Origin: Apostichopus japonicus
Lineage: Eukaryota > Echinodermata > Holothuroidea > Aspidochirotida > Stichopodidae
Direction of reading: 5' to 3'
DNA length: 64,000 nt
NCBI RefSeq assembly: GCF_037975245.1
Contig: NC_092566.1
Coordinates: 9,919,501 to 9,983,500, forward strand
Numbering within the stretch: the first letter of the stretch is position 1; each line of letters starts with the position of its first letter. Of this stretch, positions 11,709 to 59,491 are shown in pieces. The notes beneath the pieces are model-generated. The model worked only from the letters and a program-made list of their open reading frames with translations, ran no database searches and had not been told where the DNA came from. The position numbers and the translations under genes are program-made.

Positions 11709-11733
11709 ATTGTGTGCGTGTGTGTGTGTGTGT
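11709..11733. repeat. (GT)n microsatellite
   Basis: Short TG/GT run, absent from the equivalent place in copy B. Confidence 0.8.
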
Positions 11734-12432
11734 GCATACGACAAGGAGTATTTTTACCCCCGTAGCAGTGGTCTAATTTTCTCCGGCGAAATTCCCCCCG
11801 AATGACGATGGGGTGGGATGGTCTCCCTCCCCACCCCACCCAGGCCTCTCCCAACCCCAACCCAACCCACCCCTTGCGCTCACCACTGGCCAGAAGTAAT
11901 ATTCATTCTCTAAGTTAAATTACCCAAAGTTACTATATTTTTCTCCAGAAATGTACCTATGTTTTCCAATATCATATTAGTGCTATAATCCACCTGATTG
12001 ACAAAATCATTGGGCTCTGTATGGCTTTGACTAAGCAATTGTTTCTGTTATAATGATACTCCTACACTGAACAATTCATCCGGTGTCGTGTTCTGTAAAT
12101 AAACTTTCGTATAATGTACGACAAGTGAAAAACCCCTATATTTCGTAATATTGAATCCTTCTATTATCAGCGCGAACTAACCAAAAAGAAGGCCTATATA
12201 AAGATTGCCTGAGTCGTGGTTTTGATTGGAAAACCCCTATGTTTAGAAAGTATAAAGAAACACGATAATCGATATACAACATGTCTCCCGCACATTGCAC
12301 ATAGGTAAGAACGAAACAAAATATTGGTATACGTGCATACTCAAACGGCGCCAGATCAAAGCATCTAACATGAGGAAAACGGTATTTTACAAGTTTGATG
12401 TCCGCGTGTCATTGCTTAAGCCTTATATAGGG

Positions 12433-12742
12433 TGTTTCGAAAGTTCGTTCCGCCCTATCCGTATTTCTTTTTAAAAAGATGTTTAAAGCTACACTAAACA
12501 CCATTCATACGGTAATTGTTATTATTTTATGTAGGCTACATATATATGTATTGATGTAGTAGAGTCAGTTTCCTTATTTGTTTTCCCTTTCTTCCGAATT
12601 ACGAATTGAAGCTGGCGACAGTCGGAAATTCTGACAGTCGGAAATTCCGACTGTCGCACTCAAATTTTCCAACTATCGTCATTTTTACCAAGATTGGGGG
12701 GTGAAACACCCCCACACCCCCCCCCCCCTCTAGCGACGTCCC
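12433..12742 (-). mobile_element. Insertion present only in duplicated copy A
   Basis: Copy B (about 25838-25870) lacks this block. The right end is the reverse complement of the hAT terminus at 4216 (CAGGGACGTC) including a duplicated palindrome; the left end (AGGGTGTTTCGAAAGTTCG) does not match it and is mariner-like in flavour. GCTTAAGCC plus a near-identical TATAT extension lies on both sides, longer than an 8-bp hAT duplication. It may be a chimeric or composite insertion. Confidence 0.6.
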
Positions 12743-14270
12743 TGGCTTAAGCCATATATTAATTGAAAATGTGCTTATTCTGTGCGAACGGAATAAATCA
12801 TATGAACTAAACAGAGCCTTGTAATTGTTTGATTGTAGACATGGTTAAGACATCAGGATCGATAGATATAACGGATAGTTACATTTTATATAATTAAACG
12901 TAGAATCAGGTTTTGAAATTTGTTCCATTAGCAAAGTTCCAATTCTTCGGCATAATCGTTTTATTTACTGTATTCTTGAGAGATCAATTAAGGGAGGACA
13001 TTCTACGACGAGAATAATTACCCTTAATACAGGCGACGACGAATGCTGCGATAAACTGCAGATATTTCAAAGTTCGGCTACGAGACGTTTATCTCCGGCA
13101 CCACCCCATTCCTAAGTTTTATATTATTTTATATACTTCTGAAAGAAGATAAACGAATGGGGTTATTCAAAATATTTAAATGACGTAATATTCCGGTGGC
13201 CCAATTTGATTGACATGTTTGTGATGTGTAAGTATGTGTGTGTGTGGGGGGGGGGGGGTGGGAACATAAACTACTGTACTTTTCTACACAGGGGGAGGAG
13301 CATAAAACTACTGTATTTTTCTACACTTTCTGTTCTTTTGTAATTTGGTCTCTAAGTCCTAGCAGAAGTTATCAAGAGGTAAACGCTACCAGATACTTAA
13401 GGATTTATATATACTCTCGTGAAATGGTAATATTATATTATGTGTTATATATTGTGTTATATTATGTGTAAAATATGTGTGAAATATCCGACTACAAGCA
13501 AGAGCTATAAGCCTCCGTGTGTCTATAAACCATCACAATATATACATTCTTATGTGTGTTTTTATTTGGTGGGGGTTGAGAGGGGGAAGGTTGTTTGTCA
13601 TAAGGTTCTCATGGTCGTATCATGTATATAGGGTTTGAACATCTTCTCACGGATCGCATGGTGGCCCCTTTATGTGGTCTAAAACGACCATAGAAAGTGC
13701 ACGGAATGTTCATTTTCAGTATACATAATACAAGTATATATGTTTAAAGTTTCTTATCCATACGAAACTAAATTTAGCGATCCGTTGAAAATTTTGGTAC
13801 GTTACGTTAAATTGCAGTTCAGGTTAACAATTACCGGTACGAAAACTAGCACTCTGTATAGCCTTTGTAAAATATGAGTCAGGCCTGGGTATATGGGAGG
13901 CCATCGCCGCCAAAAAAACAGACAAAAATTATTATTAAACGTAAAAAACAACACAAAAGAAAGGTTTAAAACAAACTTTCATGAAAAAAAAAAGTTTAAA
14001 ACGAAAAGAGGTAAATTAAGAAGACAAAGAATTACAGAAACTTTCAACTGACCAAACGTGATGTAAATAAACACAAAACAAATAAACACAAGAAAAGTTT
14101 AATCTTACAAAGGTAAAAAGCGTACACATCAGACCTTTAAAAAAAAAAGCACAAAAAAATGCAAATAATATATTGCAATTAAACGAAATACAAATACAAG
14201 TTAATAATGTAAAATATTACAAAGAACTAAAATATTGTAACGCTGTTACTGTAAAGTTGTGGTGCAATGG

Positions 14271-15944
14271 GATATCTGAAATCTAAAATACATACATGAT
14301 CATTTCCACATGTAGGATATATACGAACGTGGTGGAGGGTGTGTGTGTGGTGGGTGCGGGTGGAGGAGGGTTCCCTTTGTAGTGTTGAAACGATGCTACA
14401 TTTTACGTCTATCTTCGTGTATCACATGTATATATTAAAAAATAAAAACTGTCGACACGATCAATCAGTCCTGTCTCTCACCTCCTCTCATGCACTGGTG
14501 TATTTCCTTCCCTCTGTTTACCCTGTATTTTTTAATTTGCCGACTCCCCTCCCCCCTCCCATCCCCCCAAAAATATATGTTCACAAGGTTAACAAGTCTA
14601 TAGTCCCAAGCTAAACACACATGTCGTGGTGAACGCTCACTATACTTGCGGATCAAGACGGATCCTCCCCCCCCCCCCCCACACTGTACTTCCCAGTTTC
14701 AGGAATCGGCATATGGAAGATTATTCGGAGTTTTCCCAAAAGCTAAAAAAAAAAATAGTTGTTCGTGATGGTTCAATGATCTTATAGTCAGACATAGGCC
14801 TTTATATGGTTCTCTTTGTCCTTCATTGACGTCGAAGTTTGAAATGAATTAATCGTGCTAGGAACGTTCGGACAATTTTTTAAATTTCTCTGGAAAGAAA
14901 AATAGCTTCCCCAGTGTTCCTTCAGGTTGAGTAGAGCCCTTACGCCTATATGGTCACACAATAGTATAGAGTATGATCCATGCAGACAGCTCGTATTTTT
15001 TTTTATTATATTCCATCCAATTTCAGTTCAACTTTCGAAGGACAATTTTTGGTTGACTAGTATCAAGTTGAGGGTTGTAATTCGAGTCAGTCGTGATGAG
15101 GTGCAGGGGTAGCCCCATGGTGGGGATGGGTACCCCCACCCCCACCCTCATCCCGTTGCCGACTTTTTGGCATTTCGTTGGGAGCCTTTCGGAACAAGAA
15201 GCAGGATATAACTGTTAATTTATTATTCATTTCTTATCCCCTCTTTGCCAATCCTTTCTGAAGAGGGTGGAGCCGCCCCTTATGGCAACGTCTTTTACTT
15301 CCCTTTTGCCGTTCAAGTTTCGTTATTTTTAATTCGGTGCACCGGTTAGGAGGATGGGGTGCAGCTAAGGCAAGTGCTCTGTGATCGCTTAAAGGGCCCG
15401 TGGCCAGGAGCCCAAATATAAGTCAATATACATATTTATCTATATATGATATATGACAAAAATGCTTTGTCTTTCCCTCCTGATATAGAACTAAAATGCA
15501 TATATATAAAAGAAATTAAACAGACTGTGTCTATATATAAATAAATTGAATGAAATAACAATTGTTCACAAATGACGGACTTGACCATACGTTTGATACC
15601 CAATGTTGTAATCACTTCAGAAAAAAAATTCACTTTGTATTTGCGTTTTTATTTTTGTGACACGAGCCAGTGTGTATCGGACTTATATTCACTATTAGTT
15701 TCGTGAGCTGTAAAAAAATGTCGAGTCGCGACTTCGGTTACAATATTTGCAAATACTTTACTCCAGTTAGTACAAGACTGGTGCATCTGGAAAAGTTTGA
15801 AATACACTGGTTTGTTACATTAAAATAGCATTAGACTACTTCACTTCTATAGGCTAAACTTTTGATATTCGATAAAGCATGGACAGCTTTCCTAATGGGT
15901 GAATCAACTACGAAACCAGGGCACCCAAACCGGTCAGACTTCGA
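14271..15944. other. Non-coding stretch, no gene seen
   Basis: No supportable exon. A C-run lies near 14667-14680 and AT-rich sequence near 15420-15560. A 22-bp stretch near 14297 (CATGATCATTTCCACATGTA) recurs at about 30710. Confidence 0.45.
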
Positions 15945-15983
15945 CTGCCCCCCCCCCCCCCCAACACATTTGGAAAAGGGGTA

Positions 15984-18143
15984 GTGTCTATTTGGTTAGG
16001 GCTTACACATCTCAGGATTCATATCATCGAATATTCAGCTTTTTCAGCTTACTCAGCTAATTACTCAGCTAAATACTCAGCTAATTCAGCTTACAACTCA
16101 TTTTTTAACACTTTTTATTTAACTTATAATAAGTGTTTTCCTCATCTATTAATTACTAAAGGAAATAGGCGCAAGAGAAAACATCCATGGATTACTAAGG
16201 GTATACTAAAATCTATTAAAAGAAAAAACCATCTCTACAGACTTTACTCAAAAGCTCCTACAAATAGCAATAGAGAAATTTATGTTGCTTACCGAAACAA
16301 GTTAAACCACATAATAAGATTTTCTAAAAGGTTATATTTTTATAACAAATTCAAAGATAGTAACAATAATGTAAATGATACCTGGGGCGTAATCAATGAG
16401 GTTCTTAAGAAAGACCGTAAGAAATCATCGTACCCATCTGTTTTCAAAGACGGCGATCACGAAACCAGCGACGATCAAGACATTGCAAACGGTTTTAACG
16501 ACTTCTTCATTAACCTTGGACCCTCACTTGCCAGCAAAATCAGTCATACTGCAAAATCAAACAACCATATGTATAGCAATAATAGTACGCGAAACTCTAT
16601 TTTCACCTACCCTGTCAGGGAGGAGGAACTCTTACGTGTTGCGAATCATTGCTTAAAGCCAAAGAAGGCAGCTGGGTATGATGATTTCAAGCCAGATATT
16701 GTTAAGCAGGTATTACCTTTCATTGTCACCCCTCTTACTCATATCTGTAACATATCGTTCACCACTGGGGTATTCCCAGACAAGCTGAAGATTGCTAAGG
16801 TCTTGCCCATTTTTAAGAAAGGAGAATCCAATATCTACGAGAACTACCGACCAATCTCTATTCTATCATGCTTTTCCAAAATTCTCGAACGTCTCATGTC
16901 CAACAGAATAATAAATTTTCTAGATGCTAATGACATACTTTGCAAGGAACAATATGGATTCCGCCCTGGTCACTCAACTGAGCTTGCCCTGGCAGATGCC
17001 ATTGATAAATTATACGATAGCCTTGATAAGAAGAAAACATGTATTGGAATATTCTTAGATCTATCAAAAGCATTTGATACCATTGACCATCGTATTCTGC
17101 TAAACAAGTTATCATTCTACGGTATTAGAGGACCAACCCTTAACTGGATGGACAGCTACTTATCAAAACGTTTACAGTATACTTCGTATAAGAAGACCAT
17201 GTCTGACTATGCTGAAATCCGCTGTGGTGTTCCTCAAGGTTCAATATTAGGACCACTTCTTTTCATTATATATATCAATGACATCTGTCATATCTCTAAT
17301 ATTGCAAAAACTATTTTATTTGCAGATGACACTAGTATATTTTTCGAATCCAATAACTTGAATACTTTACATGACATAGTATCCATGGAGTTGAATCAAT
17401 TTAACGACTGGTTTGCAACTAATAAGCTTTCACTTAATCTTGATAAAACCAGCTACATTGTGTTCAATAAAAGCAAATCTTTTTCTTGGAAAAAAGACAT
17501 TTTAATGGATGGTAAGCCTATCAAGCATGTACATAGCATAAAGTTTCTCGGAGTTTATATTGATAGTAAACTTACTTGGTGTGAACATATATCAAATATT
17601 GCAAACACTGTGGCGAAAAATGTTGGTATCATTTCTAAGTTGAAACACTATTTTCCTCAGAATATTCTTAGAATGCTTTACCAAACATTAGTGTTCCCCC
17701 ATTTTTCATATTGCTCTATAATCTGGTCTGGCACCCATAATGTTTATCTTCATCCTCTTGAAATCCTACAAAAGAAAGTCATTCGTCACATAACTCATTC
17801 TGAATATCGTGAACACACCAGCTCACTTTTCAAATTGCTCAACTTATTAAAATTTAACGATATTGTTAGGCTGAATGTAGCCACATTCTTTTACAAGGCT
17901 TGGAATGGCTTACTTCCTGCAGCCTTTCATGACTTATTTACTATTAACAGCGCCATACATAGTCACCGCACTAGAAGTGCCGGTCAAGCACACCACAACT
18001 TATGTAATACAACATTTGGTACGTTAAGTTTAAAGAATCGTGCTATGAGGACATGGAATGATCTAACTGCTACTATAAAATCTAAACCATCTAAAGAAAC
18101 ATTTAGAAAAGCACTAAAAAAAGAAGTAATTTCTCAGTATTGA
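15984..18143 (+). CDS. LINE reverse transcriptase, long open frame, 5'-truncated
   Basis: An uninterrupted 719-codon frame. Residues from about 280 to 460 form a reverse-transcriptase domain: YRPIS near 286, FRPGHST near 327, LDLSKAFDTIDH from 358, GVPQGSILGPLLF from 415 and the catalytic FADD at 446-449. A thumb and C-terminal region follow, with a TRSAG...LSLKNRAMRTWNDL pattern near the end as in CR1/L2/Jockey-like LINEs. There is no endonuclease domain. The first ~17 codons come from the flanking hAT sequence, so the real LINE part starts at about 16035 and the ATG at 15984 is accidental. The intact frame suggests recent insertion. Without an endonuclease or 5' promoter the copy is probably immobile. 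Confidence 0.85.
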   Translation: MSIWLGLTHLRIHIIEYSAFSAYSANYSAKYSANSAYNSFFNTFYLTYNKCFPHLLITKGNRRKRKHPWITKGILKSIKRKNHLYRLYSKAPTNSNREIYVAYRNKLNHIIRFSKRLYFYNKFKDSNNNVNDTWGVINEVLKKDRKKSSYPSVFKDGDHETSDDQDIANGFNDFFINLGPSLASKISHTAKSNNHMYSNNSTRNSIFTYPVREEELLRVANHCLKPKKAAGYDDFKPDIVKQVLPFIVTPLTHICNISFTTGVFPDKLKIAKVLPIFKKGESNIYENYRPISILSCFSKILERLMSNRIINFLDANDILCKEQYGFRPGHSTELALADAIDKLYDSLDKKKTCIGIFLDLSKAFDTIDHRILLNKLSFYGIRGPTLNWMDSYLSKRLQYTSYKKTMSDYAEIRCGVPQGSILGPLLFIIYINDICHISNIAKTILFADDTSIFFESNNLNTLHDIVSMELNQFNDWFATNKLSLNLDKTSYIVFNKSKSFSWKKDILMDGKPIKHVHSIKFLGVYIDSKLTWCEHISNIANTVAKNVGIISKLKHYFPQNILRMLYQTLVFPHFSYCSIIWSGTHNVYLHPLEILQKKVIRHITHSEYREHTSSLFKLLNLLKFNDIVRLNVATFFYKAWNGLLPAAFHDLFTINSAIHSHRTRSAGQAHHNLCNTTFGTLSLKNRAMRTWNDLTATIKSKPSKETFRKALKKEVISQY

Positions 18144-22620: not shown

Positions 22621-23436
22621 CCCCCCCACCTCCCCACTTTCACAACTCAAATCCCGCCCCAGCACTTGCACAATGATGGATCAAATTGTGCCAAAGTTCA
22701 AACGCAGGGGAATGTGTTTACATTAGTATCGGCGATGACGCCATTATTGATTATACTAATATTATATAGTTTAGCTGCACATAAACGTTGATTGTACATT
22801 GCGAGTCAATAGGTCATATCACACAAAACGTGTGTGTAGCCTATATCTACGTACATCATACTATATTATTGCGACTTTCATTTTATAGGAAGTGCATGGA
22901 GTGTAATTGAGACAACGCCTACCACACAATTCTCAAGAAAAACTATAGTCCTGTAGAAACGAATCTGTAACAAGAACGCTTATTCGATCATCTATAAGAA
23001 GGTAAGTTTTCACCGTAGTCTTGTTTTATCATCTCATGTTCGATAACAGTGACATTCACCGGCTTTTTGCATATAGTCCATTGTACATGATTATATACAT
23101 CGTATCATAGCTTCACACTACATGGTTTTTGATAGATCGATTGCCAGTCAATAATACATATCAAACAAAAACGTGTGTGTATATTCAATACGTACATCAT
23201 ACACGATTATTGCAGTGTTAATTCTAGGCAGTGCATGTAGAATTCAGGCAACGCCAACCTCATTCTTACTAAAGACTGGTCCTGTAGGAACGAAACTGTA
23301 ACAAGAAAGCCTGTTTGATCAACTTAGTAGGCAAGTTTTAACCATAGTCTTGTTTTATAAGTTTCTGTTCGTTGACAGCGACACTCACCAGATTTTTGCG
23401 TATAGTCCTTTACATATATAGTCCTGTATATCCTGT

Positions 23437-23538
<102 letters not shown>

Positions 23539-23688
23539 TATACGCATGTGGTATATATACGCATGTGATATGACAGATTGTAATAATATATATATACATA
23601 TCTTAATACATATATATGTAATATTAGGCGTATTGAAAATGAGGGGCTATCTTTGTTTTTCGCAATTTAGCTCATTCAGCGAAGACAA

Positions 23689-24091
23689 ATGGCGGCTGAT
23701 ATGAACATCCCTGATGGCATACCTGATCAAGACAGCCTAGTTGTCACTGATGAAGATTTACAGGTTTGTAAACAAGATTTAATTCTGGACATAGTAAACA
23801 ATCATAAAGACAAAAAAATCAACAAGGTAAGATCTTTTTCTTCTTCTTCTTCTATTTCAGTTTCTTTCGGGAAATGTACCTAGCGGATGGAAAGTTTTAG
23901 GTCGCGCGCTTGGGTTTCAGCCTGCTGAATTGGATGCAATTGAAATAGACAATCACGGACCGACAGGAGGCCACAGGGAAACAGTCTACAATATGTTGTT
24001 GAAATGGAAGAGAAGGCATGGGGGCAATGCCACAGTATACGCATTAAAACAGGCTCTGAAAAAGGCAGAGATGGAGGGCATCTTACTATAG
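23689..24091 (+). CDS. Small Death-domain protein, copy B (2 coding exons)
   Basis: Exons 23689-23826 and 23861-24091 join in phase to 122 residues. The first 46 residues are acidic and end in a helix-like QDLILDIVNNHKDKKINK. The second exon is a Death domain: W56, LGRALGF (59-65), ELDAIEID, YNMLLKWKRRHGGNAT (89-104) and YALKQALKKAEMEGILL to the stop. Death domains mediate homotypic assembly in apoptosis and innate-immune signalling; no partner domain is present, so an adaptor-like or inhibitory role is only inference. The intron is just 34 nt, with GTAAGA, a long pyrimidine tract and TTTCAG. The start is the first ATG after a possible acceptor CTCATTCAG. A possible leader donor GTAAGT is at 23002 and an AATAAA at 24398. 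Upstream exons may be missing. Confidence 0.62.
23827..23860 (+). other. Very short (34-nt) intron
   Basis: GTAAGA donor, CT-rich tract, TTTCAG acceptor. Removing it keeps the Death-domain frame; leaving it in reaches a stop at 23881. The equivalent interval in copy A has a displaced donor. Confidence 0.6.
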
Positions 24092-24397
24092 AAATCGAGC
24101 AAAACATTCTTTAACCGGTATACATTGCTTAAAAAATTGTATAGACAATTTGTTCTTTTCGCTTTTGGAGGTGGAGGAAGGAGGGGGTTGTATAATGTTA
24201 CTTGTGGTTTAATTAAATAGCTGAACGTTGATATGTTATTAAGCTTAGAGTATATTAATCATTGGTTCACACCATTGCACTGAAGTGGACTATATCACAT
24301 ACAAATATGCAGTTCTATGTTAGAAACAAAACACATTGAGGGTTAAACGATTTAACCACTGATTTAGATACAAACCTTCAATGATTTTTTTTAATGG

Positions 24398-24403
24398 AAT
24401 AAA
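24398..24403 (+). promoter_or_regulatory. Possible polyadenylation signal of Death-domain copy B
   Basis: AATAAA about 305 bp after the stop codon. Copy A has AATCAA at the same place, so the signal is intact only in B. A second AATAAA lies further on in both copies (GTCAATAAAAACATC). Confidence 0.4.
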
Positions 24404-27362
24404 TATGAAAATCAACCATGAAAACTTTGCTAAGCCATTTATTTTACATAAAAATGTTCAATCAATTTACATTGGCAGTACTTACCTGGACTTTATATAA
24501 CATAATAAGAAAAGTGTAAAAAAAAAATGACATGCAGTAACCCCAAACATGAAAATGGGACTGAGCACTATACCAATTGTTGTGTTGACCTTATTATGTC
24601 TCACCTTATATTGTCAGAACTGTTCCTACTTGCAACGGTGTGTGCACTCAGGTGTTGAGAACTAGAAGGTCAAAGGTCGGTCGGTGGTTCCTATCTGTTC
24701 ATAAAAGTTTATCACTTGTCAATAAAAACATCAAATTTAGTTCTGACCAGGTTTACAAGTTCATATAGCCTAGCATAGATATACCCACACCTTAGATTAA
24801 TTCTAGAAATAGACAGTACTGTTCGAATGCAATGTTTGTAAACTTTATAGCTTTATAAGTGAATCTGATGGTAAGTGGATTATGCTGGTGCATTTTGGTA
24901 CTGAACTTGTATTGTAAGCACCTACTTTTATAAAAAGTTACGACTCATAGGCTATGCAGTGGTTTGTTATCTTGAAGCAAGGGGTCTTGGAATACTACTA
25001 TTACATGTAAGTAAAATTGTCAGAACTGTTCTTCCTCGCAACGGTACGTATGCACTGTGTTGAGAACTAGATTTAAGGCCATTTTTTTATTAGATAAATA
25101 TACGGCTCTGGGTTGAGCTAATAAATACCACTGAAAAGTGTAAATTATGTGCGTGAGTGTGCGTACGAAAAGGAGTATTTTCACCCCCGTAGCAGTAGTC
25201 TAATTTGCTCCGGCGAAATTCCCCCCGAATAACGATGTGGTGGGATGGTCTCCCTCCCCACCCCACCCAGGCCTCTCCCCACCCCAACCCAACCCACCCC
25301 TTGCGCTCGCCACTGGCCAGAAGTAATATTCATTCTCTAAGTTAAATTACCCAAAGTTACTATATTTTTCGCCAGAAATGTACCTATGTTTTCCAATATC
25401 ATATTAGTGTTATAATCCACCTGATTGACAAAATCTTTGGGCTCTGTATGGCTGTGACCCAGCAATTGTTTCCTTATAATGATACTCCTACACTGAACAA
25501 TTCATCCGGTGTCGTGTTCTGTAAATAAACTTTCGTATAATGTACGACAAGTGGAAAACCCCTATATTTCGTAATATTGAATCATTCTATTATCAGCGCG
25601 AACTAACCAAAAAGAAAGCCTTTATAAAGATTGCCTGAGTCGTGGTTTTGATTGGAAAACCCCAATGTTTCGAAAGTATATAGAAACAGTATAATCGATA
25701 TACAACATGTCTCCCGCACATTGTACATATAGGTAAGAACGAAACAAAATTATGGTATTCGTGCATATTCAGCGCCAGATCAAAGCATCTAACATGAGGA
25801 AAACTGTATTTTACAAGTTTGATGTCCGCGTGTCATTGCTTATGCCTTATATGTAAATATATTAATTGGAAATTGGCTTATTCTGTGCGAAGGGAATAAC
25901 TAAACAGAGCCTTATCATAATTTGATTGTAGGGGTGGTTAAGGCTATCCGATATAACGGATAGTTACATTTTATATAATGAAACGTATATAGAATCAGGT
26001 TTTGAAATTTGTTCCGTTAGCAAAGTTCCAATTCTTCGGCATAATCGTTTTATTTACTTTATTCTTAAGAGATCAATTAAGGGAGGACATTCTACGACGA
26101 GAATAATTACCCTTAATAAAGGCGACGACGAATGCGGCGATAAACTGCAGATATTTCAAAGTTCGGCTACGAGACGTTTATCTCCGGCACCACCCCATTC
26201 CTAAGTTTTATATTATTGTATATACTTCTGAAAGAAGATAAACGAATGGGGTTATTCAAAATATTTAAATGACGTAATATTCCGGTGGCCCAATTTGATT
26301 GACATGTTTGTGTACGGTGTGTATGTGTGTGTGTGTGTGGGGGGGGTGTGGGGGGGGTAGGAGCATAACCTACTGTATTTTTCTACACTTTCTGTTCCTT
26401 TGTAATTTGGTCTCTAAGTCCTAGCAGAAGTTATCAAGAGGTAAACGCTACCAGATACTTAAGGATTTATAACTCCCGTGAAAATGGTTATATTATATTA
26501 TGTGTTATATTTTGTGTTATATTATGTGTAAAATATGTGTGAAATATCCGACTACAAGCAAGAGCTATAAGCCTCCGTGTGTCTATAAACCATCACAATG
26601 TATACATTCTTATGTGTGTTTTTATTTGGTGGGGGTTGGGGGGGGGGATTTGTTTGTCCTAAGGTTCTCATGGTCGTATCATGTATATAGGGTTTGAACA
26701 TGTTCTCACGGATCGCATGGTGGCCCCTTTATGTAGTCTAAAACGACCATAGAAAGTGCACGGAATGTTCATTTTCAGTATACATAATACAAGTATGTTT
26801 AAAGTTTCTTATCCATACGAATCTAAATTTAGCGATCCGCTGAAAATATTGTTAGGTTACGTTAAATTGCAGATCTGGTTAACAATTACGACAAATAGCA
26901 CTTTGTATAGCCTTTGTAAAATATGAGTCAGGCCTGGGTATATGTGAGGCCATTGCCGCAACAACAAAAAAACAACAACAGACAAAAATTATAATTAAAC
27001 GTAAAAAACAACACAAAAGAAAGGTTACAAACAAACTTTCATGAAAACAAAAATAAAGAAAATAGAAACCAAGTTTAAGACGACAAAAGGGTAAATTAAA
27101 AAGACAAAGAATTACAGAAACTTTCAACTGACCAAACGTTAGGTAAAGAAACGCAAAACGAATAAACACAAGAAAAGTTTAATCTTAAAAAGGTAAGAAG
27201 CGTACACATCACACCTTTAAAAAAAATAATTAAGCACAAAAAAACAATTGCAAATAATATATTGCAATTAAACGAAATACAAATACAAGTTAATAATGTA
27301 AAATATTACAAAGAACTAATTGATGTAAACGCTGTTGCTGTAAAGTTGTGATGCAATAGGAG

Positions 27363-27933: not shown

Positions 27934-29426
27934 GAATATTTTTTCCCAAACAGGTTTGCAATTATGTGTAAATAGTCGCTCATGGTTGGTCGGAAAGTTA
28001 CGTCATCACCATAGAAACCTTCACTTTGAGGCTACCAAAATGTCCGCATCCATTCGTTTCAACAAAGATATACCCGTTCAAAGTTACCCGAAGCTTTTTG
28101 TATCTTTGGAATTGGTTTAGACATATTTAGCACACTAGTTTGTTATGATTGTATGAGCTACTATCTATGCTTGGTCGAAGATTTCTGTGAAGGCATTAAT
28201 CGACAACATCGCACAGTGAAAGTTTCGTACAGAGTGGTTCAAACGTGCTGTAGGCCGCCTATATGTATTATAATTGTGTACACAGTGCAGTGACGGAAAT
28301 ATCATACGCCAGACTACAATGTTTTGCGTATATTCATTCAAGACACAGTCAATCTCGATGCAATGGGGTTGAGAGCGGATCAGTCGTTCGGTTGTTTGGT
28401 TTTCGTGCCCAGGTTCTTTCCTGGGTGACTTTTCTTAAAAAGTTTTCATTCAAGACTCGTGAACTGGCGTCATGAAGTTAATTTTAGCGTACCCATTCCA
28501 CGAAACGACTTCCGATTTCAATAGAGCGGCTCACGAATCTTAGATAACGTAAACACAATGGAATGTAGCGCATGTATCATAAGTAAGGTCAACATGTGAT
28601 CCAAGCATTAAAAGTAAAGTTATACGTTTGAAGGGACACCCCATAACTAGACTAAATTAATTGTCGGTGTGTTATTCTACGGAAGCGTAGAAGGGACATT
28701 GCATTGACGAGTTACCAACTTGACAAAACGACAATTATCTGCAAATTGACGAGATAACGGATCTCGTCAAAACGTCAATTTCCTGAATTTTGTCATCTTG
28801 TCGAGATGGTAGTAAGTGTGCAACTCGTCAATTTGCAGAAAATTGATACATTGACGAGATCAGTTATCTCGTCAACTCGTCAATTTTCTGAATTTTTTCA
28901 TCTTGTCGAGATGTTAGTAAGTGTGCAACTCGTCAATCTGCAGAAAATTGTTGCATTGACGAGATCAGTTATCTCGTCAACTCGTCAATTTTCTGAATTT
29001 TGTCATCTTGTCGAGATGGTAGTAAGTGTGCAACTCGTCAATATGCAGAAAATTGTTGCATTGACGAGATCCGTTATCTCGTCAAAACGTCAATTTTCTC
29101 AATTTTGTCATTTTGTCGAGATGGTAGTAAGTGTGCAACTCGTCAATTTGCAGAAATTTGTTGCATTGACGAGATCCGTTATCTCGTCAAAACGTCAATT
29201 TTCTGAATTTTGTCACGTTACCATCTCGTCAACTCGTCAATTTGCAGATAATTGTCGTTTTGTCAAGTTGGTAACTCGTCAATGTAATGTTCCTTCTACG
29301 CTTCCGTAGTTATTCAGTGTATGTCTTCGAACTTCCAGGCGATGGTCATTATAAGTGCTGATGTAACGAGCAATCTGATCGGCTGAAAACTCTGTAATTG
29401 CAAACCTGTTTGGGAAAAAAATATTC
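27934..29426. mobile_element. Possible 1.5-kb TIR element of unknown class
   Basis: 27934-27964 and 29395-29426 are ~31-bp inverted repeats (AATATTTTTTCCCAAACAGG outward to inward). Weaker complementarity extends further inwards. I found no clear target duplication. The 631-bp foldback element lies inside. Apart from that, the interior has no supported gene. Confidence 0.45.
28678..29308. mobile_element. Foldback element with 105-bp tandem core
   Basis: Terminal inverted repeats of about 80 bp begin TACGGAAGCGTAGAAGGG; with the adjoining base the very end folds on itself (CTACG...CGTAG). A 7-bp direct repeat GTTATTC flanks it (28671-28677 and 29309-29315). The middle holds four 105-bp tandem units starting at 28803, 28908, 29013 and 29118. 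The whole element is saturated with CTCGTCAA and its complement. The period is a multiple of three, so a 167-codon frame runs through it without evidence of coding. Superfamily unknown. Confidence 0.82.
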
Positions 29427-33720: not shown

Positions 33721-35005
33721 TGTTATTGTTTGATTGTATCTAATGTTTGCAAAATTTTAAGTTGCATGCTACCAATTGAAACATAATTCTTTCTCTATTA
33801 ATGGGATATAAATACTTCTCCTTAAAGGGTGTGGAGACTCCCGCACAAAGAAACGTCTCATGCCGGTTATCTGACCTAGATTCGAATGCGGTGTAACAGA
33901 AGTGTTAGACACCACCATTGATCCCAGAAAATACACATACAGCTTGCTACCATCTGTAAATAGACATTAGTGTACAGTCAATACAAACATCACAGTCAAT
34001 ACCCACAACACAGTGCACATAGCAGCGTGGACATCTCAGGTCTAGATAAAAGATAACAAGGTATCGGGTTTCATTACTGTCTGCATTTTGTAGCGACACA
34101 AAAAAAACTTCACTTGCAAGCAACGGAAAGTAAACTTTTTCAGAGCGCGGCATGGGGTTTAGGGCAAGTCTTCAATACCTTTAAATATACTGCATCGGTT
34201 GTTATCACTTGATCATTTGCTTGTGTGTGAGCTAAACAGCTTAAATAATATGTAAAAAAATAATACAAACTTTCAAATTGCCAGATATTTACTTGCTCAA
34301 AATCATTATCCAATCATGATTTGTTGCTATCCTTGAGTCCATTATTCAGATGATGAGGCAGATTCCCTTCGACTCTCCATGATGAAGGTAAAACCTTATA
34401 TCTTAACCAACTGCCATTGAGTGTCCATTTGAAAGTTTCAAACACACAAGTGCATTGATTAAAACAAAGACTTTATTGCTGTGGTTGCAGGAACTGGATT
34501 TCAGTCTAGAAGTCACTCACCAGGTTTGTCATTATCACAGTCTGCTAACTGTGGCTTTTTATGTTAGGAGTTTTTCTTCAGAGCACATGTCACCTTTGAT
34601 TTGTAAAAAAAGTCCTGAAATTCAGGGAAATAAAATTTACTGTCTAAAGATAATTTAAAAAGGTTTTTTTTAACTTCAATCATCAATGTGGGTGTCAATT
34701 AAGGGAATAAGGAGGTACTGATGCAACTTTGATAAATGATAGTTGACTGCATCCAAATTAAACCAAGGCCTAGGCTATACTTTTGAAGAAGAAAAAATTA
34801 GGCTGAATTCATGTTAGCCTAAAAAGGCTAGGCCAGTGCTGACAATTAACACAAACCAAGATCATTTAACCATTTGGGCACTTGTTTATGACATACTAAA
34901 AGGGTCTATATAATTAGGCCTGTATGTGTACACAACCCAGAAGTTGCCAATGAGTATAGACCTAGCCTAACTAGTTTAGGCCTAGGCTACTTTGTTTTCC
35001 TTAGA

Positions 35006-35449
35006 CCTAGTTTAATTGGGCCTTATACTGTGCCATATTATGTAATGTGCTATAACAGTTGTAGTAATAGCAAGAATGGTCCAGGTCTAACTAAGCCCAG
35101 GCTTAACTTATGCTTCGGGCTTAACTAAGGATTAGGGCTTTACGTGATGCCTTGAGGCTAGCCCACCCTTTTACATAGAACTAAAAGTGACACTTTTTTA
35201 GGCTAGGCATAGCCTAGGCATACAATACCTAGTTTAATTGGGCCTTATACTGTGCCATATTATGTAATGTGCTATAACAGTTGTAGTAATAGCAAGAATG
35301 GTCCAGGTCTAACTAAGCCCAGGCTTAACTTATGCTTCGGGCTTAACTAAGGATTAGGGCTTTACGTGATGCCTTGAGGCTAGCCCACCCTTTTACATAG
35401 AACTAAAAGTGATACTTTTTTAGGCTAGGCATAGCCTAGGCATACAATA
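35006..35449. repeat. 222-bp tandem duplication
   Basis: Two consecutive units (35006-35227 and 35228-35449) are nearly identical, with few differences such as GTGACAC versus GTGATAC. Each is rich in TAGGCCTA/TAGGCTAGGC words. It is either a very recent duplication or an assembly duplication. Confidence 0.9.
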
Positions 35450-36017
35450 ACTAGGAATTAGGATAACTATATGTGCGACTGAAACTGCCATGCCTATGAT
35501 TAGGAGAGCTGGCATAATGAAATCGAATTTGTGGATCGTAAAACGAGAGAGAATAGCCATGCATGTAATTACAGAAACCAGTCTGAACGTAAAATTCTCG
35601 CATTGCTTGTACATTACTCGTATTACACTAGGGCATATGGCTAGTATGGGCCTAGGCTACACAGACTTTTTTTCATTAGATCTCCATCTTGTTCTTTCTA
35701 CTTCCAAAAAATTCCTCTTCTTTTATGGTCAGTCGGATAATCGAACAACAATATCCATGTTCTGACCGATTGCAGCATCCCCAGCACCATTTCTTTCATA
35801 ATTTCGTACTTTTTTCGTGTACAAAACGATAGTCTATACACTGTGAGTATGCGTGTCGTCTGCTATAAAGTTTTCAAGTGGACCTATTTTACCACCCTGT
35901 GTGGGCGTTTTCCCTCTCGACCAATCCAAATCGGTTACATGGTTGGCCAAACTCTCTCTATATACGGCTCTGATACACCACAGAGCTAACATAAGAGACG
36001 CTTTCGGCTGGCTTATA

Positions 36018-36096: not shown

Positions 36097-36115
36097 GCCT
36101 AACTAGGGTCAAGAC

Positions 36116-38564
36116 TATGGCGGGCCATCAGTCTCAAATCATGGGAGATCGACTTATACCGATTTAAATCGACATATACCAGTTTCCCTCGACATATCAT
36201 CGATTTATTTTACTTATCATCGAATTAAATCGACATATACCAGTTTACTTCGACATATCATCGATTTAAATCGACATATACCAGTTTCATTCTACATATC
36301 ATCGATTTATTTTACTTATCATCGATTTAAATCGATGATAAGTAAAATAAATCGATGATATGTCGAAGTTAACTGGTATATGTCGATTTAAATCGATGAT
36401 ATGTAGAATGAAACTGGTATAGGTCGATTTAAATCGACATATCATCGATTTATTCTACATATCATCGATTTATTTTACTTATCATCGATTTAAATCGATG
36501 ATATGTAAAATAAATCGATGATATGTCCATTTAAATCGACATCTACCAGTTTAAATCGATGATATGTCGAATTAAATCGGTAGAAGTCAATTTCCGTGGA
36601 CTTATACCAGTTTCTAGCGTCTCAAATTGACATATACCTATTTAAATCGACATATCATCGATTTAGCTCATTAACATATTCCAAATCCCGATTTCGGTGA
36701 TGATTGACATGTGGAGATACATCACGTGTAGTCACCTGACAAGGCGGGCGAGTAATTTAATAGTTCCAAAATTACGAAGCTAGCAAGGGTGTTCATCATG
36801 GTTATATGTCAATGGTAATTATGAACAATTACTTGCAAAAAGATTTCGGTGTAACAATAAGGCTGAAATAACTGATATGTCAATGACGTGCAATTATCTC
36901 AATGCAAACTGGGCTTGTCTACTCGAACACGTGGCGCTATAGTATAGGAATACACATGCAACTGAATAGGCCCACAGTACGTACACAGATGCAATTACCT
37001 ACACCAGTTACACCATAAACAAAGATGATATTGTTCTGCAGTGAGGCCTACTGTAAGGTTACGTTTTAATGTAGCTAAGTATATACCCATGGGGTTTAAC
37101 GGTTACAGTATTCAAGCTCAAATCATGCATTCCACTGTGCTCGTGTTCAAGGGCGGCGGAACCGGGGGGGCACAGGGGGCACGTGCCCCCCCACTTTTCC
37201 TCAGGTTAAAAATGTGCCCTTTTTCTACATAAAAATTGAGGTGTCTCAAGTTAGCAAGAGGCTAGGGAACCACAATGAACACTCGGGAAGGGCCGTTTCC
37301 GGCCATCTTAGGGGTTTGTAAAACCAAAAATTTTCTTGTACGCTCCGCGCCAACCGATGGTGGCGCTCCGCTCAGATAGTCGTGCATACAACTTTGCAAA
37401 TCTTTACTACGCCCCTGACTTTTAATGAATAACTGTGGGTCAAACTCAAAGCTATTTCGAATGGAAAAATATTGTTAAGATATAAACAAGAAATAATGTC
37501 TAATTTGGAAGATTCCTACACTAGCAACAAGCATGATATCACCTCATTTTGTCTCAAAACTTGTTTCCCAATTTGCACATTGGATATTGCAGTACTAGTA
37601 TGCATATTTTCTTTGAGGGGGGGGGGGGGGGGCCTTGATGGAGTGATGTGTATACGCATATAAGATAATACAATAAGAGTTATAAAGGGTACTAAATATA
37701 AGGCTGCATCAGTGCAATCGAATTTCTGCAAAGTGCCCTTTGATGTCGGTGCCCCCCCAGATTAAAAGTGCTTCCGCCGCCCTTGCTCGTGTTTATTTTC
37801 AATTATTCGCCCGCCTTGTCAGGTGACTACACGTGATGTATCTCCACATGTCAATCATCACCGAAATCGGGATTTGGAAAATGTTAATGAGCTAAATCGA
37901 TGATATGTCGATTTAAATAGGTAAATGTCGATTTGAGACCCTAGAAACTGGTATAAGTCCACGGAAATTGACTTCTACCGATTTAATTCGACATATCATC
38001 GATTTAAATCGACATATACCAGTTTACTTCGACATATCATCGATTTATTTTACTTATCATCGATTTAAATCGATGATAAGTAAAATAAATCGATGATATG
38101 TAGAATAAATCGATGATATGTTGATTTAAATCGACATATACCAGTTTCATTCTACATATCATCGATTTAAATCGACATATACCAGTTTACTTCGACATAT
38201 CATCGATTTATTTTACTTATCATCGATTTAAATCGATGATAAGTAAAATAAATCGATGATATGTAGAATGAAACTGGTATATGTCGGTTTAAATCGATGA
38301 TATGTAGAATGAAACTGGTATAAGTCGAATGAAACTGGTATAAGTCGAAGAAAACTGGTATATGTCGAAGGAAACTGGTATATGTCGATTTAAATCGGTA
38401 TAAGTCGATCTCCCATGATTTGAGACTGATGGCCCGCCATAGATATGTAGAATGAAACTGGTATAAGTCGAAGGAAACTGGTATATGTCGAAGGAAACTG
38501 GTATATGTCGATTTAAATCGGTATAAGTCGATCTCCCATGATTTGAGACTGATGGCCCGCCATA
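36116..38564. mobile_element. Large foldback element with palindromic-word arms
   Basis: Terminal inverted repeats begin TATGGCGGGCCATCAGTCTC and extend about 640 bp on each side (36116-36755 and about 37800-38564). A 6-bp repeat CAAGAC flanks it (36110-36115 and 38565-38570), 7 bp if the border T is counted as flank. The arms are permuted runs of ATCGATGATATGTCGA, ATTTAAATCGAC, ACTGGTATAAGTCGA and ATTTTACTTATC plus complements. The right end is duplicated (a second terminus at about 38427-38444). A unique ~390-bp centre is interrupted by a hAT element at 37148-37785. No coding capacity. Confidence 0.85.
37148..37785. mobile_element. hAT element nested in the foldback element, 638 bp
   Basis: Exact 8-bp flanking repeat CTCGTGTT (37140-37147 and 37786-37793) and inverted ends CAAGGGCGGCGGAA. 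G-runs and C-runs lie near both ends. It contains the shared ~100-bp module at about 37280-37385 in minus orientation. No transposase. Confidence 0.88.
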
Positions 38565-39429
38565 CAAGACTACTATACTTCATCATAGGCAGTACGTACA
38601 TATGTTTTTCAACACGCGGTCGGAGCCAAAACCACTCTCTATATTTAGGCATAGCGCCACTACACCATTATCTTTTTTTTTTCATTTTCGTAAACCGTCT
38701 GCTCCTAGCTCCTAAAGCAACTGCACCATTGTATTCGATCGTACGATAATTTGTACTTGAAACAGCTGCATCCTCGATATCCACAGTGTTATTCGTAAGG
38801 GCTTATTTTTACCGGTAATTGATGTGATTTAGAAGAAAACCAAAGCAGGAAGCTCATCTGATTCAAAGCTACTTGTGATTTACATCTCATAATTTGATGG
38901 ACAGACGACGAAGTTTGTGAAATCCTTTAACGCTGTCTTCCCAAAGTGCCTGAATTTACTTGAATTTACTTAAGTTTAGACTGAACGTTAACATTACATG
39001 TTGCCTATGCCACAGGAATGTCTGTGGCCTAGGCCTATGCTCGATAGTATCATTCCTAATTTATCCAGGTCCGTAATGTTTTGAGTGCAGCACGTTAGCC
39101 TGAGTGTTTAGCACACGAGCCTAGGCTGTAGCCTAACTTAGCAGTTAACTGCAATTTTAGAAAGCAACACAAAGTTACGTTAGGTCTAAACTAAGTAGAT
39201 TTTTGCCAAGTTTTTGCATAGACTTCCAGTTCCAACTGTTTGCCTATGCTACTCAATGTGATATTACCATTGGAAAGCCACCGTTGGGTGTCAGCCACAT
39301 AACCAACATCAGACTTAACAACTAGTAATGATTAATATTGAGGCAGTTTGTTAATGTTAGGCTAACAACATTCTTGTTGTTCAACTGAACATAACAATTC
39401 TTCCCAAAGTCCTCGAACCCTGTGCAATA
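38565..39429 (+). promoter_or_regulatory. 5' flank / leader region of the CDP-DAG synthase gene
   Basis: The 865 bp between the foldback element and the start codon must hold the leader and probably the promoter, unless an upstream non-coding exon exists. I see no clear TATA box. An in-frame TAG at 39358-39360 precedes the ATG with no ATG between them, which supports the chosen start. Confidence 0.4.
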
Positions 39430-57500: not shown

Positions 57501-59491
57501 TAGTCTCTTCAGTCTCTGATACCACATTGGAGGGTATGTATAGAGAATAAACTGCAACTGAAGTTTCGTAAAAAATATAGACAATTGGGAAAGTGAGGAA
57601 GAACAAGATGGCGTCATGTCTCACATGATATATTTAAAAGAATGGTAACAAGATGGCATCATGTCTCACATGATATATTTAAAAGAATGGTAACAAGATG
57701 GCGTCATGTCTCACATGATATATTTAAAAGAATGGTAACAAGATGGCGTCATGTCTCACATGATTTATTTAAAAGATTGGTAACAAGATGGCGTCATGTC
57801 TCACATGATATAATTAAAAGAATGGTAACAAGATGGGGTCATGTCTCACATGATATATTTAAAAGAATGGTAACAAGATGGTGTCATGTCTCACATGATA
57901 TATTTAACAGAATGGTAACAAGATGGTGTCATGTCTCACATGATATATTTAAAAGAATGGTAACAAGATGGTGTCATGTCTCACATGATATATTTAAAAG
58001 ATTGGTAACAAGATGGCATCATGTCTCACGTGATATATTTAACAGAATGGTAACAAGATGGTGTCATGTCTCACATGATATATTTAAAAGAATGGTAACA
58101 AGATGGTGTCATGTCTCACATGATATATTTAACAGAATGGTAACAAGATGGTGTCATGTCTCACATGATATATTTAAAAGAATGGTAACAAGATGGCATC
58201 ATGTCTCACATGATATATTTAAAAGAATGGTAACAAGATGGCATCATGTCTCACATGATATATTTAACAGAATGGTAACAAGATGGTGTCATGTCTCACA
58301 TGATATATTTTAAAGAATGGTAACAAGATGGTGTCATGTCTCACATGATATATTTATATTCCCAATAGCTCATTTTTCCCAACCTTTTCTCTGGACACTG
58401 CATCCCTGATAGTAGACTTACGTGCAGAGAAGATAAGGTGACCAATTACTTTGTGAGGTGAACTGAACTTAGGATTGATCTTACAGTGTTCATGTTTTCC
58501 TTCATTAAGGAATGATGTGAGACAAAAACGACATTTTCAGCTACAACCGGGTGCAATGTCATGAAAATCGTCCGTCTGTAAATAATTTTCTTCCAAAACC
58601 TGTGCAAACACCTCGAATCTGTGAACATGTTGAAAACTATTTTTTTCCTTCTCTTTCTCTGTTTAGGATTTTGGGGATGTCTTCCCAGGTCATGGTGGTA
58701 TCATGGATAGGTTTGACTGTCAGCTGATGATGGCTTCTTTCCACTATGTGTATATGGCAACGTTCATCAGGTGAATATTCAACCTATGTTATATCTTAGC
58801 AACGGACCATTCCATTAACCCAGGAGGTGGACCAGCATGTGTCTGTCTTTATTGTTTGTATTATATACTTTTCCAACTGAAATTTAATTCTTTTAAGTTT
58901 TACCCCATTGTGTACTATGGCTTGTTCATAAATTGTGTAAGTTAGAACTCAGTCATATCTTTGATTTCACTGAATTTCTTTTCTATGAACCTTTCAATTC
59001 AAGTTGTATATTGCATAAATTTGACACAGGTTGGTGATCCAATAGTCCACCTTTAACTGTATGATCAGGTACCTGATAACCATCCTTCACTTCAGCTCAC
59101 CAAAATCCTCAAGGCAAGGTGAAAATTAGGCATACAGTCTCAAGTTTTTGAGTGAACCTTTTAATCAGTTACTAATTAGAAGTATTTCAAGTCATTGCAA
59201 ACACATAAATCTCTTACTTCATTTGAGATGTATCGATTTGGACTTTTGTTTCAGAAAGACTTCAAGTTCCTCAACAATGCAAAATACAGCTTGATTAAAC
59301 CAAATTTACTTTTTTTGTTTTTTATATATTTGTTTTATGTATTTTTTGTTTTCAACAGATCCCCAAATCCATTGAGGGTATTGCAGCAAGTTTTCCAGTT
59401 GCCCGGAGATTCTCAGCTTCTCATCTACAACGAACTTCAAAAGTCTCTCATTAATGACGGCCTCTTAGATCCGCCAGCGATAGAACCCTAA
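39430..59491 (+). CDS. CDS2: CDP-diacylglycerol synthase (phosphatidate cytidylyltransferase), 13 exons
   Basis: Converts phosphatidic acid and CTP to CDP-diacylglycerol, the precursor of phosphatidylinositol and related lipids, in the endoplasmic reticulum membrane. Exons: 39430-39534, 42578-42684, 44160-44256, 45153-45332, 46116-46176, 49306-49364, 51775-51913, 53371-53471, 54706-54753, 55492-55596, 56612-56746, 58667-58770, 59359-59491. They sum to 1374 nt (457 residues), close to human CDS1 and CDS2 (about 445-461), every junction in phase with GT-AG borders. The acidic N-terminus (1-70) is cytosolic. Hydrophobic segments lie near 80-103, 133-150, 174-195, 204-222, 228-249, 268-288 and 351-370. 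The family signature S-x-F-K-R-x4-K-D-x-G...H-G-G-x-x-D-R-x-D is complete at residues 370-396, with the catalytic acidic residues present. The start is the first ATG after an in-frame stop. Invertebrates usually have a single gene ancestral to both human paralogues, so the symbol is by similarity. Confidence 0.97.
41355..41373. repeat. (AAT)n microsatellite in intron 1
   Basis: Short AAT run. The rest of intron 1 holds only a C-run near 39810 and no other recognised feature. Confidence 0.85.
42578..42684 (+). CDS. CDS2: CDP-DAG synthase exon 2
   Basis: Residues 36-71 (start of R71), with [20 protein letters not shown]; acceptor TTCCCAG, donor GTAAGG. The exon is the cytosolic linker to the first membrane helix. 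Confidence 0.93.
43006..43021 (+). promoter_or_regulatory. DR4-type nuclear-receptor half-site pair in intron 2
   Basis: Two AGGTCA words separated by TCTG. This is the consensus spacing for thyroid-hormone/LXR-type heterodimers. A single chance match in 64 kb is possible. Confidence 0.25.
44160..44256 (+). CDS. CDS2: CDP-DAG synthase exon 3
   Basis: Completes R71 and covers residues 72-103: [12 protein letters not shown] followed by a strongly hydrophobic first membrane segment. Acceptor TCCTCAG, donor GTAGGT. Confidence 0.95.
44461..44505. repeat. 23-bp tandem duplication in intron 3
   Basis: GAATGCTCCTTTAAAGCTAA plus ATA repeated twice without change until the last base. Confidence 0.9.
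45153..45332 (+). CDS. CDS2: CDP-DAG synthase exon 4
   Basis: Residues 104-163, the longest exon. It includes the highly conserved [14 protein letters not shown] stretch and ends KRE-L. Acceptor TCTCCTAG, donor GTGAGT. Confidence 0.97.
45355..45565. repeat. G-rich minisatellite in intron 4
   Basis: Three units of 66-72 bp (starting near 45367, 45433 and 45504), each GGTGGCTGAGAGGTGGAGTG...ATTGGTATTT followed by a G-run of growing length. Confidence 0.9.
46116..46176 (+). CDS. CDS2: CDP-DAG synthase exon 5
   Basis: Residues 164-183 and the first base of G184; [11 protein letters not shown] corresponds to a conserved membrane segment. Phase 1 junction. Confidence 0.94.
46655..47290. repeat. 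Probable interspersed repeat in intron 5
   Basis: A block unlike its AT-rich surroundings. It starts with the hairpin-forming CATACCAGCATGCTGGTGTG and contains several GGGTCA/AGGTCAAA words and a GC-rich core (GGCCCGGGCCGCGGCCC). No coding frame. Confidence 0.4.
48440..48560. repeat. ATT-rich simple repeat in intron 5
   Basis: Imperfect (TTA)n/(ATT)n run. The Asn-rich frame on the minus strand is an artefact of it. Confidence 0.85.
49306..49364 (+). CDS. CDS2: CDP-DAG synthase exon 6
   Basis: Residues 184-203: [20 protein letters not shown]. Acceptor TTGTCTTAG, donor GTGAGT. The preceding intron 5 is the longest in the gene (3129 bp). Confidence 0.95.
49441..49725. repeat. 153-bp tandem duplication in intron 6
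   Basis: Units start at 49441 and 49594 with ACTGCTGCAGTA and share TATAAATCTCGTTTAAATTT and CATCCCTAGTATTGAT. Several substitutions separate them. Confidence 0.85.
51775..51913 (+). CDS. CDS2: CDP-DAG synthase exon 7
   Basis: Residues 204-249 and the first base of G250. Contains [12 protein letters not shown] and FEGLIWFL...SSVICNDI, both diagnostic of eukaryotic CDP-DAG synthases. Confidence 0.97.
53371..53471 (+). CDS. CDS2: CDP-DAG synthase exon 8
   Basis: Residues 250-283, with the near-invariant [20 protein letters not shown], a functional core segment. Acceptor CATCTCTAG, donor GTAAGT. Confidence 0.98.
54706..54753 (+). CDS. CDS2: CDP-DAG synthase exon 9
   Basis: A 48-nt exon for residues 284-299, [16 protein letters not shown]. 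Acceptor TCTCCCACAG, donor GTAAGA. Confidence 0.93.
55028..55140. mobile_element. Short hAT-like fragment in intron 9
   Basis: Starts AGGGTTGGGCGATATATC and continues with ATCGCGATAATTTT and GACGATATTTAT. The AGGGTTGGGCGATAT terminus is typical of a short repeat common in animals. The other end and a target duplication are not identified. Confidence 0.4.
55492..55596 (+). CDS. CDS2: CDP-DAG synthase exon 10
   Basis: Residues 300-334, a luminal-type loop with [19 protein letters not shown]. The acceptor TATATACAG is weak in pyrimidines. Donor GTATGT. Confidence 0.94.
56612..56746 (+). CDS. CDS2: CDP-DAG synthase exon 11
   Basis: Residues 335-379: the last hydrophobic segment and the first half of the signature, ending [10 protein letters not shown]. 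Acceptor TTTTCTTAG, donor GTGAGT. Confidence 0.97.
57602..58356. repeat. 45-bp minisatellite, 17 units, in intron 11
   Basis: Units of AACAAGATGGCGTCATGTC-TCACATGATATATTTAAAAGAATGGT, starting every 45 bp from 57602. The GGCGTC core is intact in 4 units and appears as GTGTC, GCATC or, once, GGGTC in the others. A period divisible by three keeps a 223-codon frame open across it; nothing indicates translation. Confidence 0.95.
58667..58770 (+). CDS. CDS2: CDP-DAG synthase exon 12
   Basis: Residues 380-413 and two bases of R414. Begins with the second half of the signature, [17 protein letters not shown], which supplies the metal-binding acidic residues. Confidence 0.98.
59359..59491 (+). CDS. 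CDS2: CDP-DAG synthase exon 13 with stop
   Basis: Completes R414 and covers residues 415-457 ([20 protein letters not shown]...), ending in TAA at 59489-59491. The C-terminal tail is cytosolic. Confidence 0.95.

What the first reader, a model, noticed from the sequence alone, without database searches (positions are those of the whole stretch)
36116..38564. 2.45-kb foldback element whose arms are permuted arrays of short palindromic words
Both ~640-bp arms consist almost only of a handful of words (ATCGATGATATGTCGA, ATTTAAATCGAC, ACTGGTATAAGTCGA, ATTTTACTTATC) and complements, so each arm can also fold on itself. A 6-7-bp flanking duplication shows it moved as a unit. This architecture matches no transposon family I can name; the duplication length alone would fit IS3EU- or Dada-like elements.
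Basis: partly seen in the sequence, partly recalled or inferred. Interest (0 to 1): 0.75.

Follow-up and report, generated by a model that had tools for sequence, protein, structure and literature searches.

The report
Palindromic foldback transposon of IS3EU type
This is a real, recently mobile, non-coding jumping gene that fits a little-studied transposon superfamily; its long arms are made of one 20-letter word repeated in both directions, and some copies look as if it had jumped into its own arms and then moved on as a bigger composite.

Summary
Window 36116-38564 is a 2,449-bp foldback transposon flanked by an exact 6-bp duplication (CAAGAC). Its genome (671.6 Mb, 35 contigs) holds 611 matches to the 25-nt end, reversed-pattern control 0. 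Of 37 two-ended elements examined, 33 have an exact 6-bp duplication. Ends TATGG..CCATA plus 6-bp duplications match the published IS3EU signature. An integrase-bearing (Pfam rva_4) family in the same genome starts TATGGTTGGCC in four copies looked at, against TATGGCGGGCC here: similar, not identical. No coding partner with identical ends was found.

Arms are arrays of 20-21-bp units in both directions, flipping at TTTAAA palindromes, and vary between copies; 9 of 28 copies lack the core. Seven internal ends sit inside arrays; four lie exactly beside the word CATATC, as expected if the element inserts into its own arms. In this window the composite (inner left end, outer right end) then moved as a unit. 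Foldback architecture is known (FB, TU, Galileo, Tetris); I found no IS3EU foldback in the papers searched. A self-targeting landing-pad role for the arms is only weakly supported.

The parts
36110..36115 (.). left target-site duplication CAAGAC
36116..38564 (.). complete foldback element (2,449 bp)
36116..36148 (+). left 33-bp end cap TATGGCGGGCCATCAGTCTCAAATCATGGGAGA
   Evidence: same end at other copies; 611 matches genome-wide to its first 25 nt with up to 2 mismatches; letters checked
36149..36665 (+). left array of 20-21-bp units (types A, B, C, D in both directions)
36666..37892 (.). non-coding core (about 600 bp in other copies) carrying a later insertion
37148..37784 (.). unrelated nested element, inverted ends AAGGGCGGCGGAA, flanked by GCTCGTGTT (37139-37147 and 37785-37793); absent from the core of L014 and of the other copies that align to it over the whole core
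37893..38408 (-). right array of 20-21-bp units
38409..38441 (-). internal (inner) right end cap
38442..38564 (-). 123-bp fragment beginning GATATG (CATATC on the other strand) and ending in the outer right end cap (38532-38564); read as the remainder of an outer element after self-insertion
38565..38570 (.). right target-site duplication CAAGAC

Best explanation
It is a non-autonomous foldback DNA transposon of IS3EU type. Shown by sequence: a 33-bp inverted end cap starting TATGG defines the element; copies sit at unrelated sites with 6-bp duplications; the core is not needed for mobility, because copies made only of end caps and array have duplications of their own; arms vary between copies; internal ends lie inside arrays, four of seven exactly beside the word CATATC. 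Best reading of that last fact: the element inserts into arrays of its own kind, and in this window the piece from the inner left end to the outer right end then moved as one unit. Inferred: the enzyme is supplied in trans by an IS3EU-type DDE transposase (Pfam rva_4 class); the 20-bp units are reiterated subterminal binding sites for it, as shown for the arm repeats of Galileo; arms grow by self-insertion with swapped ends plus slippage or unequal exchange, and shrink by deletion.
For: Ends and duplications: 25 of 28 first-set elements and 8 of 9 new pairs have an exact 6-bp duplication; matches at shifted offsets 2 of 2,184. IS3EU signature: TA..TA ends, usually 6-bp TSDs (PMC10045372, passages); TAYGG..CCRTA, TIRs over 30 bp and 6-bp TSDs for TET-bearing IS3EU of rust fungi (PMC12730594, passages). 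Same-genome integrase family: 143 rva_4 matches; the C3 and C12 copies start matching the C6 copy at the same base, and the four copies looked at, of five listed, begin TATGGTTGGCC after different flanks. Recency: 11 cores alignable over all 600 bases are 94.9-99.5% identical to that of L014. Core-less copies with exact duplications: L010, L013, L016, L017, L020, L038, L040. Change after insertion: L033 (793 bp) and L034 (374 bp) share one insertion site, left side 99.15% identical, right side 96.5%. Self-insertion: ends beside CATATC in WIN, L011, L015 and, on the other side, L024; six CATATC-TATGG junctions genome-wide, five in array context.
Against: No transposase gene with the same end cap was found. 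The same-genome integrase family agrees at 13 of 20 terminal bases, 8 of 15 beyond TATGG (p about 0.017); its right end was not located, and no inverted ends with a duplication were found in 11.4 kb around its C6 copy. That rva_4 is the IS3EU transposase domain is my recollection, not a result. Binding of any protein to the units is untested. Three of seven internal ends (L026, L044, L073) do not abut CATATC. L028 has no duplication.
Confidence: 0.8

Rival explanations
1. A foldback element of another superfamily (Mutator-like, P/Galileo-like or Dada) that resembles IS3EU by chance.
For: [quoted passage not shown] no identical-end transposase of any kind was found here.
Against: Duplication length is 6 bp in 33 of 37 and 7 bp in 2 of 37 elements, not 8-10 bp as in Tetris; ends TATGG..CCATA fit IS3EU; 24 independent sites show no common target.
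Confidence: 0.12
2. The arms are a satellite-like array that expanded in place by unequal exchange and slippage; internal ends are by-products of exchange and self-insertion plays no part.
For: L033/L034 show rearrangement after insertion; 163-bp supermodules are repeated a variable number of times; Galileo arms expand by tandem repeats, recombination and gene conversion (PMC3573991, passages); three of seven internal ends are not beside CATATC; using only the validated target position the arms are not enriched in target sites (137 against 146 per kb).
Against: Four of seven internal ends lie exactly beside CATATC or its complement, which make up 1.7% of array positions: p about 2.6e-6, or 9e-5 if WIN and L011 are one event. 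Both further ends found by that word (L092, L093) are also inside arrays.
Confidence: 0.25
3. Assembly artefact or chance palindrome.
For: Long palindromes are hard to assemble.
Against: Copies on many contigs with clean 6-bp duplications and different flanks; 0 of 100 shuffles fold as well as the left arm.
Confidence: 0.02

Closest known systems
IS3EU / GingerRoot superfamily
   Same: TA..TA (TAYGG..CCRTA) ends, 6-bp duplications, inverted ends over 30 bp (PMC10045372 and PMC12730594, passages)
   Different: no transposase; arms of hundreds of bp built of 20-bp words; no foldback of this superfamily seen in the listings or in the passages opened
Galileo (P superfamily foldback, Drosophila)
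   Same: long, internally repetitive inverted arms that expand and contract, the two arms independently (PMC3573991, passages); arm repeats contain extra transposase-binding sites (PMC3688188, abstract); copies reduced to two arms
   Different: different superfamily; about 210-bp repeats in direct tandem, against 20-bp units in both directions here
Tetris (Drosophila virilis foldback)
   Same: arms with tandem repeats of variable number, non-coding middle, repeats thought to derive from the terminal domain, satellite by-products, no autonomous partner found (PMC4079207, passages)
   Different: 220-bp repeats, 8-10-bp duplications
TU elements of sea urchin (recalled, not read)
   Same: arms with an outer domain of short (about 15-bp) tandem repeats, as recalled
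   Different: 8-bp duplications, as recalled

Membership tests
IS3EU / GingerRoot | ends TA..TA, in fungal families TAYGG..CCRTA | tested here: met
   TATGG at the left end of 28 of 28 and CCATA at the right end of 27 of 28 elements (L042 differs); all 25 end bases exact at both ends in 25 of 28 (not L028, L037, L042). The elements were chosen by a match to this end
IS3EU / GingerRoot | 6-bp target-site duplication | tested here: met
   25 of 28 and 8 of 9 exact; two are 7 bp (L039; L082/L083)
IS3EU / GingerRoot | inverted ends longer than 30 bp (stated for TET-bearing families of rust fungi) | tested here: met
   33-bp cap plus array
IS3EU / GingerRoot | mobilised by an IS3EU-class DDE transposase | tested here: inconclusive
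   rva_4 (PF24764) families present; one has TATGGTTGGCC at its start; none with the same end cap found; that rva_4 equals the IS3EU transposase is recalled
Mutator-like foldback (Tetris) | 8-10-bp duplications (value of the Tetris paper) | tested here: not met
   6 bp in 33 of 37
P superfamily / Galileo | 7-bp duplication (recalled) | tested here: not met
   7 bp in 2 of 37 elements
Dada | insertion into particular multicopy RNA genes (recalled) | tested here: not met
   24 independent sites show no shared flank beyond single-position preferences; only 18 bases per site were compared, and no site was annotated
Foldback elements (structural class) | long internally repetitive inverted arms, variable middle, no coding capacity | tested here: met

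The most novel reading that the evidence does not exclude
The arms are self-made landing pads: the 20-bp word TCTA-CATATC-ATC is a favoured insertion site for the element itself, so it repeatedly inserts into its own arms, and transposition with swapped (inner plus outer) ends carries the enlarged, permuted arm to a new place. Arm growth, permutation and sparing of host genes would then be one process.
Probability: 0.25. Interest if true: 0.75.

Novelty: new variant of a known kind. Interest (0 to 1): 0.52.

Why it matters
How foldback transposons acquire long, repetitive, palindromic arms is not settled. This family offers many recent copies in one genome with what look like frozen intermediates (nested ends, end-swapped composites, core-less palindromes, a paired long and short version of one insertion), so the question can be read directly. 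It would also extend foldback architecture to the IS3EU superfamily.

Tried and rejected
Rejected: Mutator, P and Dada membership (duplication length, no common target). Rejected: coding capacity of the core (six-frame translation of the L014 core full of stops). One-ended loci seen in 9.9-kb views (L043-L049) gave no coding partner: arms break off, and of seven open frames from L045, L046 and L048 given to Pfam the only clear hit was a cytochrome P450; the remaining frames were looked at by eye only. One of these loci (L043) lies in a 2.97-kb tandem repeat. Among rva_4 loci, L072 showed no inverted ends with duplication. L073, the widest listed exact end pair short of a 16.5-kb one on C7 that I did not inspect, holds a reverse-transcriptase-like stretch and no integrase-like frame, by eye; its left end is an internal end inside array (after GACTTA, not CATATC), and its right flank equals that of L085, so it is a duplicate of the L084/L085 insertion.

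Overturned part of my own target model: of the target positions seen in 24 sites, only G/C at the third base outside the duplication held in new material (16 of 18 paired half-sites, one pair with a 7-bp duplication counted without shifting it; 15 of 20 single ends, or 8 of 13 when near-identical flanks are dropped). The inner positions did not: G/C at the first duplicated base 9 of 18 and 9 of 20, T just outside 5 of 18 and 9 of 20, A second 4 of 18 and 11 of 20. With the validated position alone the arms are not enriched.

One search timed out and was replaced; one search failed for a term too short; one search was this report in a wrong format.

Full report
What is there. Element 36116-38564 begins TATGGCGGGCCATCAGTCTC, ends in its complement, and is flanked by CAAGAC on both sides. 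Its arms are 93.7% identical inverted repeats of about 645 bp, and the left arm alone folds better than any of 100 shuffles (z -25).

Copies. A 201-base probe gave 284 matches, with 40 of 632 candidates scored. The first 25 nt of the end have 318 forward and 293 reverse matches with up to 2 mismatches, and 0 for the reversed control; only 100 of these 611 places were listed, all exact and on C1-C7. I fetched 34 loci. 27 of the 34, plus the window copy, were two-ended by my scan; 7 were one-ended. In 25 of these 28 the six bases on either side are identical. Of the other three, L039 has a 7-bp duplication, L026 becomes a 6-bp case (GACCAC) if its outer end at locus position 1884, which lacks one base, is taken, and L028 has none. 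L033 and L034 share one site, so 24 sites are independent. Nine further end pairs from the list, fetched as 85-base snippets, gave 8 exact 6-bp duplications and one of 7 bp. Matches at shifted offsets: 2 of 2,184.

Anatomy. From outside inward: a 33-bp cap, a first unit (type C), then 20-21-bp units. Across the 28 elements 1,249 units were recognised; neighbours in the same direction are 20 bp (706) or 21 bp (167) apart, and direction flips mostly at distances of 16 bp (104) or 26 bp (58). My word pattern misses some units, and I did not measure how many. Units share the half TCGACWTAT and differ in the other half. A 163-bp supermodule is repeated a variable number of times. By eye, a stretch like cap-plus-unit (GTCTCAAATTGACATATACC, 36619-36638; letters) recurs at the inner edge of the arm, which suggests that arms were built from copies of the end; suggestive only. 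Core-bearing copies hold about 600 bp of non-coding core in either orientation; 11 cores alignable over all 600 bases are 94.9-99.5% identical to L014, and shorter alignments go down to 93.3%. Nine of 28 elements lack the core edge: eight of 374-732 bp, 97-100% covered by the window's array words, and L026 (901 bp to its inner end). L034 is a shorter version of the L033 insertion.

Class. Complete IS3EU families are said always to have TA..TA ends and usually 6-bp duplications (PMC10045372, passages); TET-bearing IS3EU of rust fungi end TAYGG..CCRTA, with TIRs over 30 bp and 6-bp duplications (PMC12730594, passages). All of this is met here. The genome has 143 matches to Pfam rva_4, an integrase core domain; I chose that model from memory as a likely IS3EU transposase domain. 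One family (C6, C3 and C12 copies, about 99% alike; two C17 copies at 85-92%) was followed outward. The C3 and C12 copies both start matching at the same base, 3 bases outside TATGG, and the four copies looked at (C6, C3, C12 and one on C17) begin TATGGTTGGCC after four different flanks. So an integrase-bearing family with a TATGG end and the shared core TATGGNNGGCC lives in the same genome. Its subterminal region also holds repeated and inverted words (ACGCGTAA four times, TTACGCGT twice, within positions 2153-2221). It agrees with the foldback end at 13 of 20 bases: a possible relative, not the proven source of the enzyme.

Self-insertion and end swapping. Six internal ends were found among the 34 loci and the window copy: WIN, L011, L015, L024, L026 and L025/L044. 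A seventh came with L073, fetched later for its width. Four of the seven abut CATATC or its complement, in register with the word TCTACATATCATC; these two 6-mers make up 1.7% of array positions, which gives p about 2.6e-6, or 9e-5 if WIN and L011 (same 123-bp fragment) are one event. L026, L044 and L073 do not fit. Genome-wide, CATATC directly precedes an end six times: WIN, L011, L015, the two new places L092 and L093, which both lie in array, and L009, an ordinary genomic duplication. Because CATATC is also an acceptable genomic target, six of about 611 is not by itself an excess; the array context is what counts. In the window copy the order is: complete inner element, complement of CATATC, then 117 bp of an outer arm with its end; the duplication CAAGAC pairs the inner left end with the outer right end. 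The simplest reading is that the element inserted into another copy's arm and the transposase then used the inner left and outer right ends, moving the composite. L011 carries the same kind of fragment at a different site (GCGGTC), so the composite moved again or arose twice. L015 is the mirror case (outer left, inner right, TGAGGG).

Target preference. In 24 sites G or C occupies the third base outside the duplication in 47 of 48 positions. This was found after the fact; in new material it is 16 of 18 and 15 of 20 (8 of 13 after dropping near-identical flanks), pooled 24 of 31 with p 1.2e-5 against a 38.5% G+C background. The inner positions did not repeat. The arms are six-fold enriched in the full motif (18.2 against 2.9 per kb) but not in the validated part (137 against 146 per kb). 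The landing-pad idea is therefore a hypothesis.

How it may work. As in Galileo, whose arm repeats hold binding sites for the transposase (PMC3688188, abstract), the 20-bp units, spaced about two helical turns, are most simply extra transposase-binding sites. Not tested here. Galileo arms are also known to expand and contract independently (PMC3573991, passages), so variable arms as such are not new.

Limits. The genome search was often busy; the right end of the rva_4 family was never obtained, and most of the 611 ends were not inspected. Not having found an IS3EU foldback in print rests on the listings of searches of an open-access library and on passages of four papers that name IS3EU; two of these report satellite repeats with similarity to IS3EU (oyster CgiSat35 and 47; beetle TCAST10), none a foldback in the passages seen. 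Repbase and Dfam were not available.

Noticed in passing
window 37148-37784: A separate small element nested in the core, inverted ends AAGGGCGGCGGAA, flanked by a 9-bp repeat GCTCGTGTT; absent from the core of L014.
   Followed up: partly
window 8960-14272 and 22715-27361: Two stretches that align in pieces in the same order, larger pieces at about 88-94% identity: a segmental duplication.
   Followed up: no
window 15903-18143: 746-codon open frame with a reverse transcriptase domain: a LINE-type element.
   Followed up: no
L043 (C19:9769000-9778900): A truncated foldback copy is carried in each of three units of a 2.97-kb tandem repeat, about 99% alike: the transposon has become part of a large tandem repeat.
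   Followed up: partly
window 57602-58356; 28745-29215; 35005-35454: Tandem arrays of 45-bp, 105-bp (with inverted flanks 28677-28762 and 29223-29309) and 222-bp units.
   Followed up: no
G000 contig C17: Many of the listed rva_4 integrase matches lie on this one contig; not counted.
   Followed up: no
L033 and L034 (C10, about 0.5 Mb apart): The same insertion site twice, left side 99.15% alike, with 793-bp and 374-bp versions: a natural pair for arm change after insertion.
   Followed up: partly
L093 (C15:845470-845610): Two end caps 29 bp apart in tandem, the second preceded by the remains of the first.
   Followed up: no
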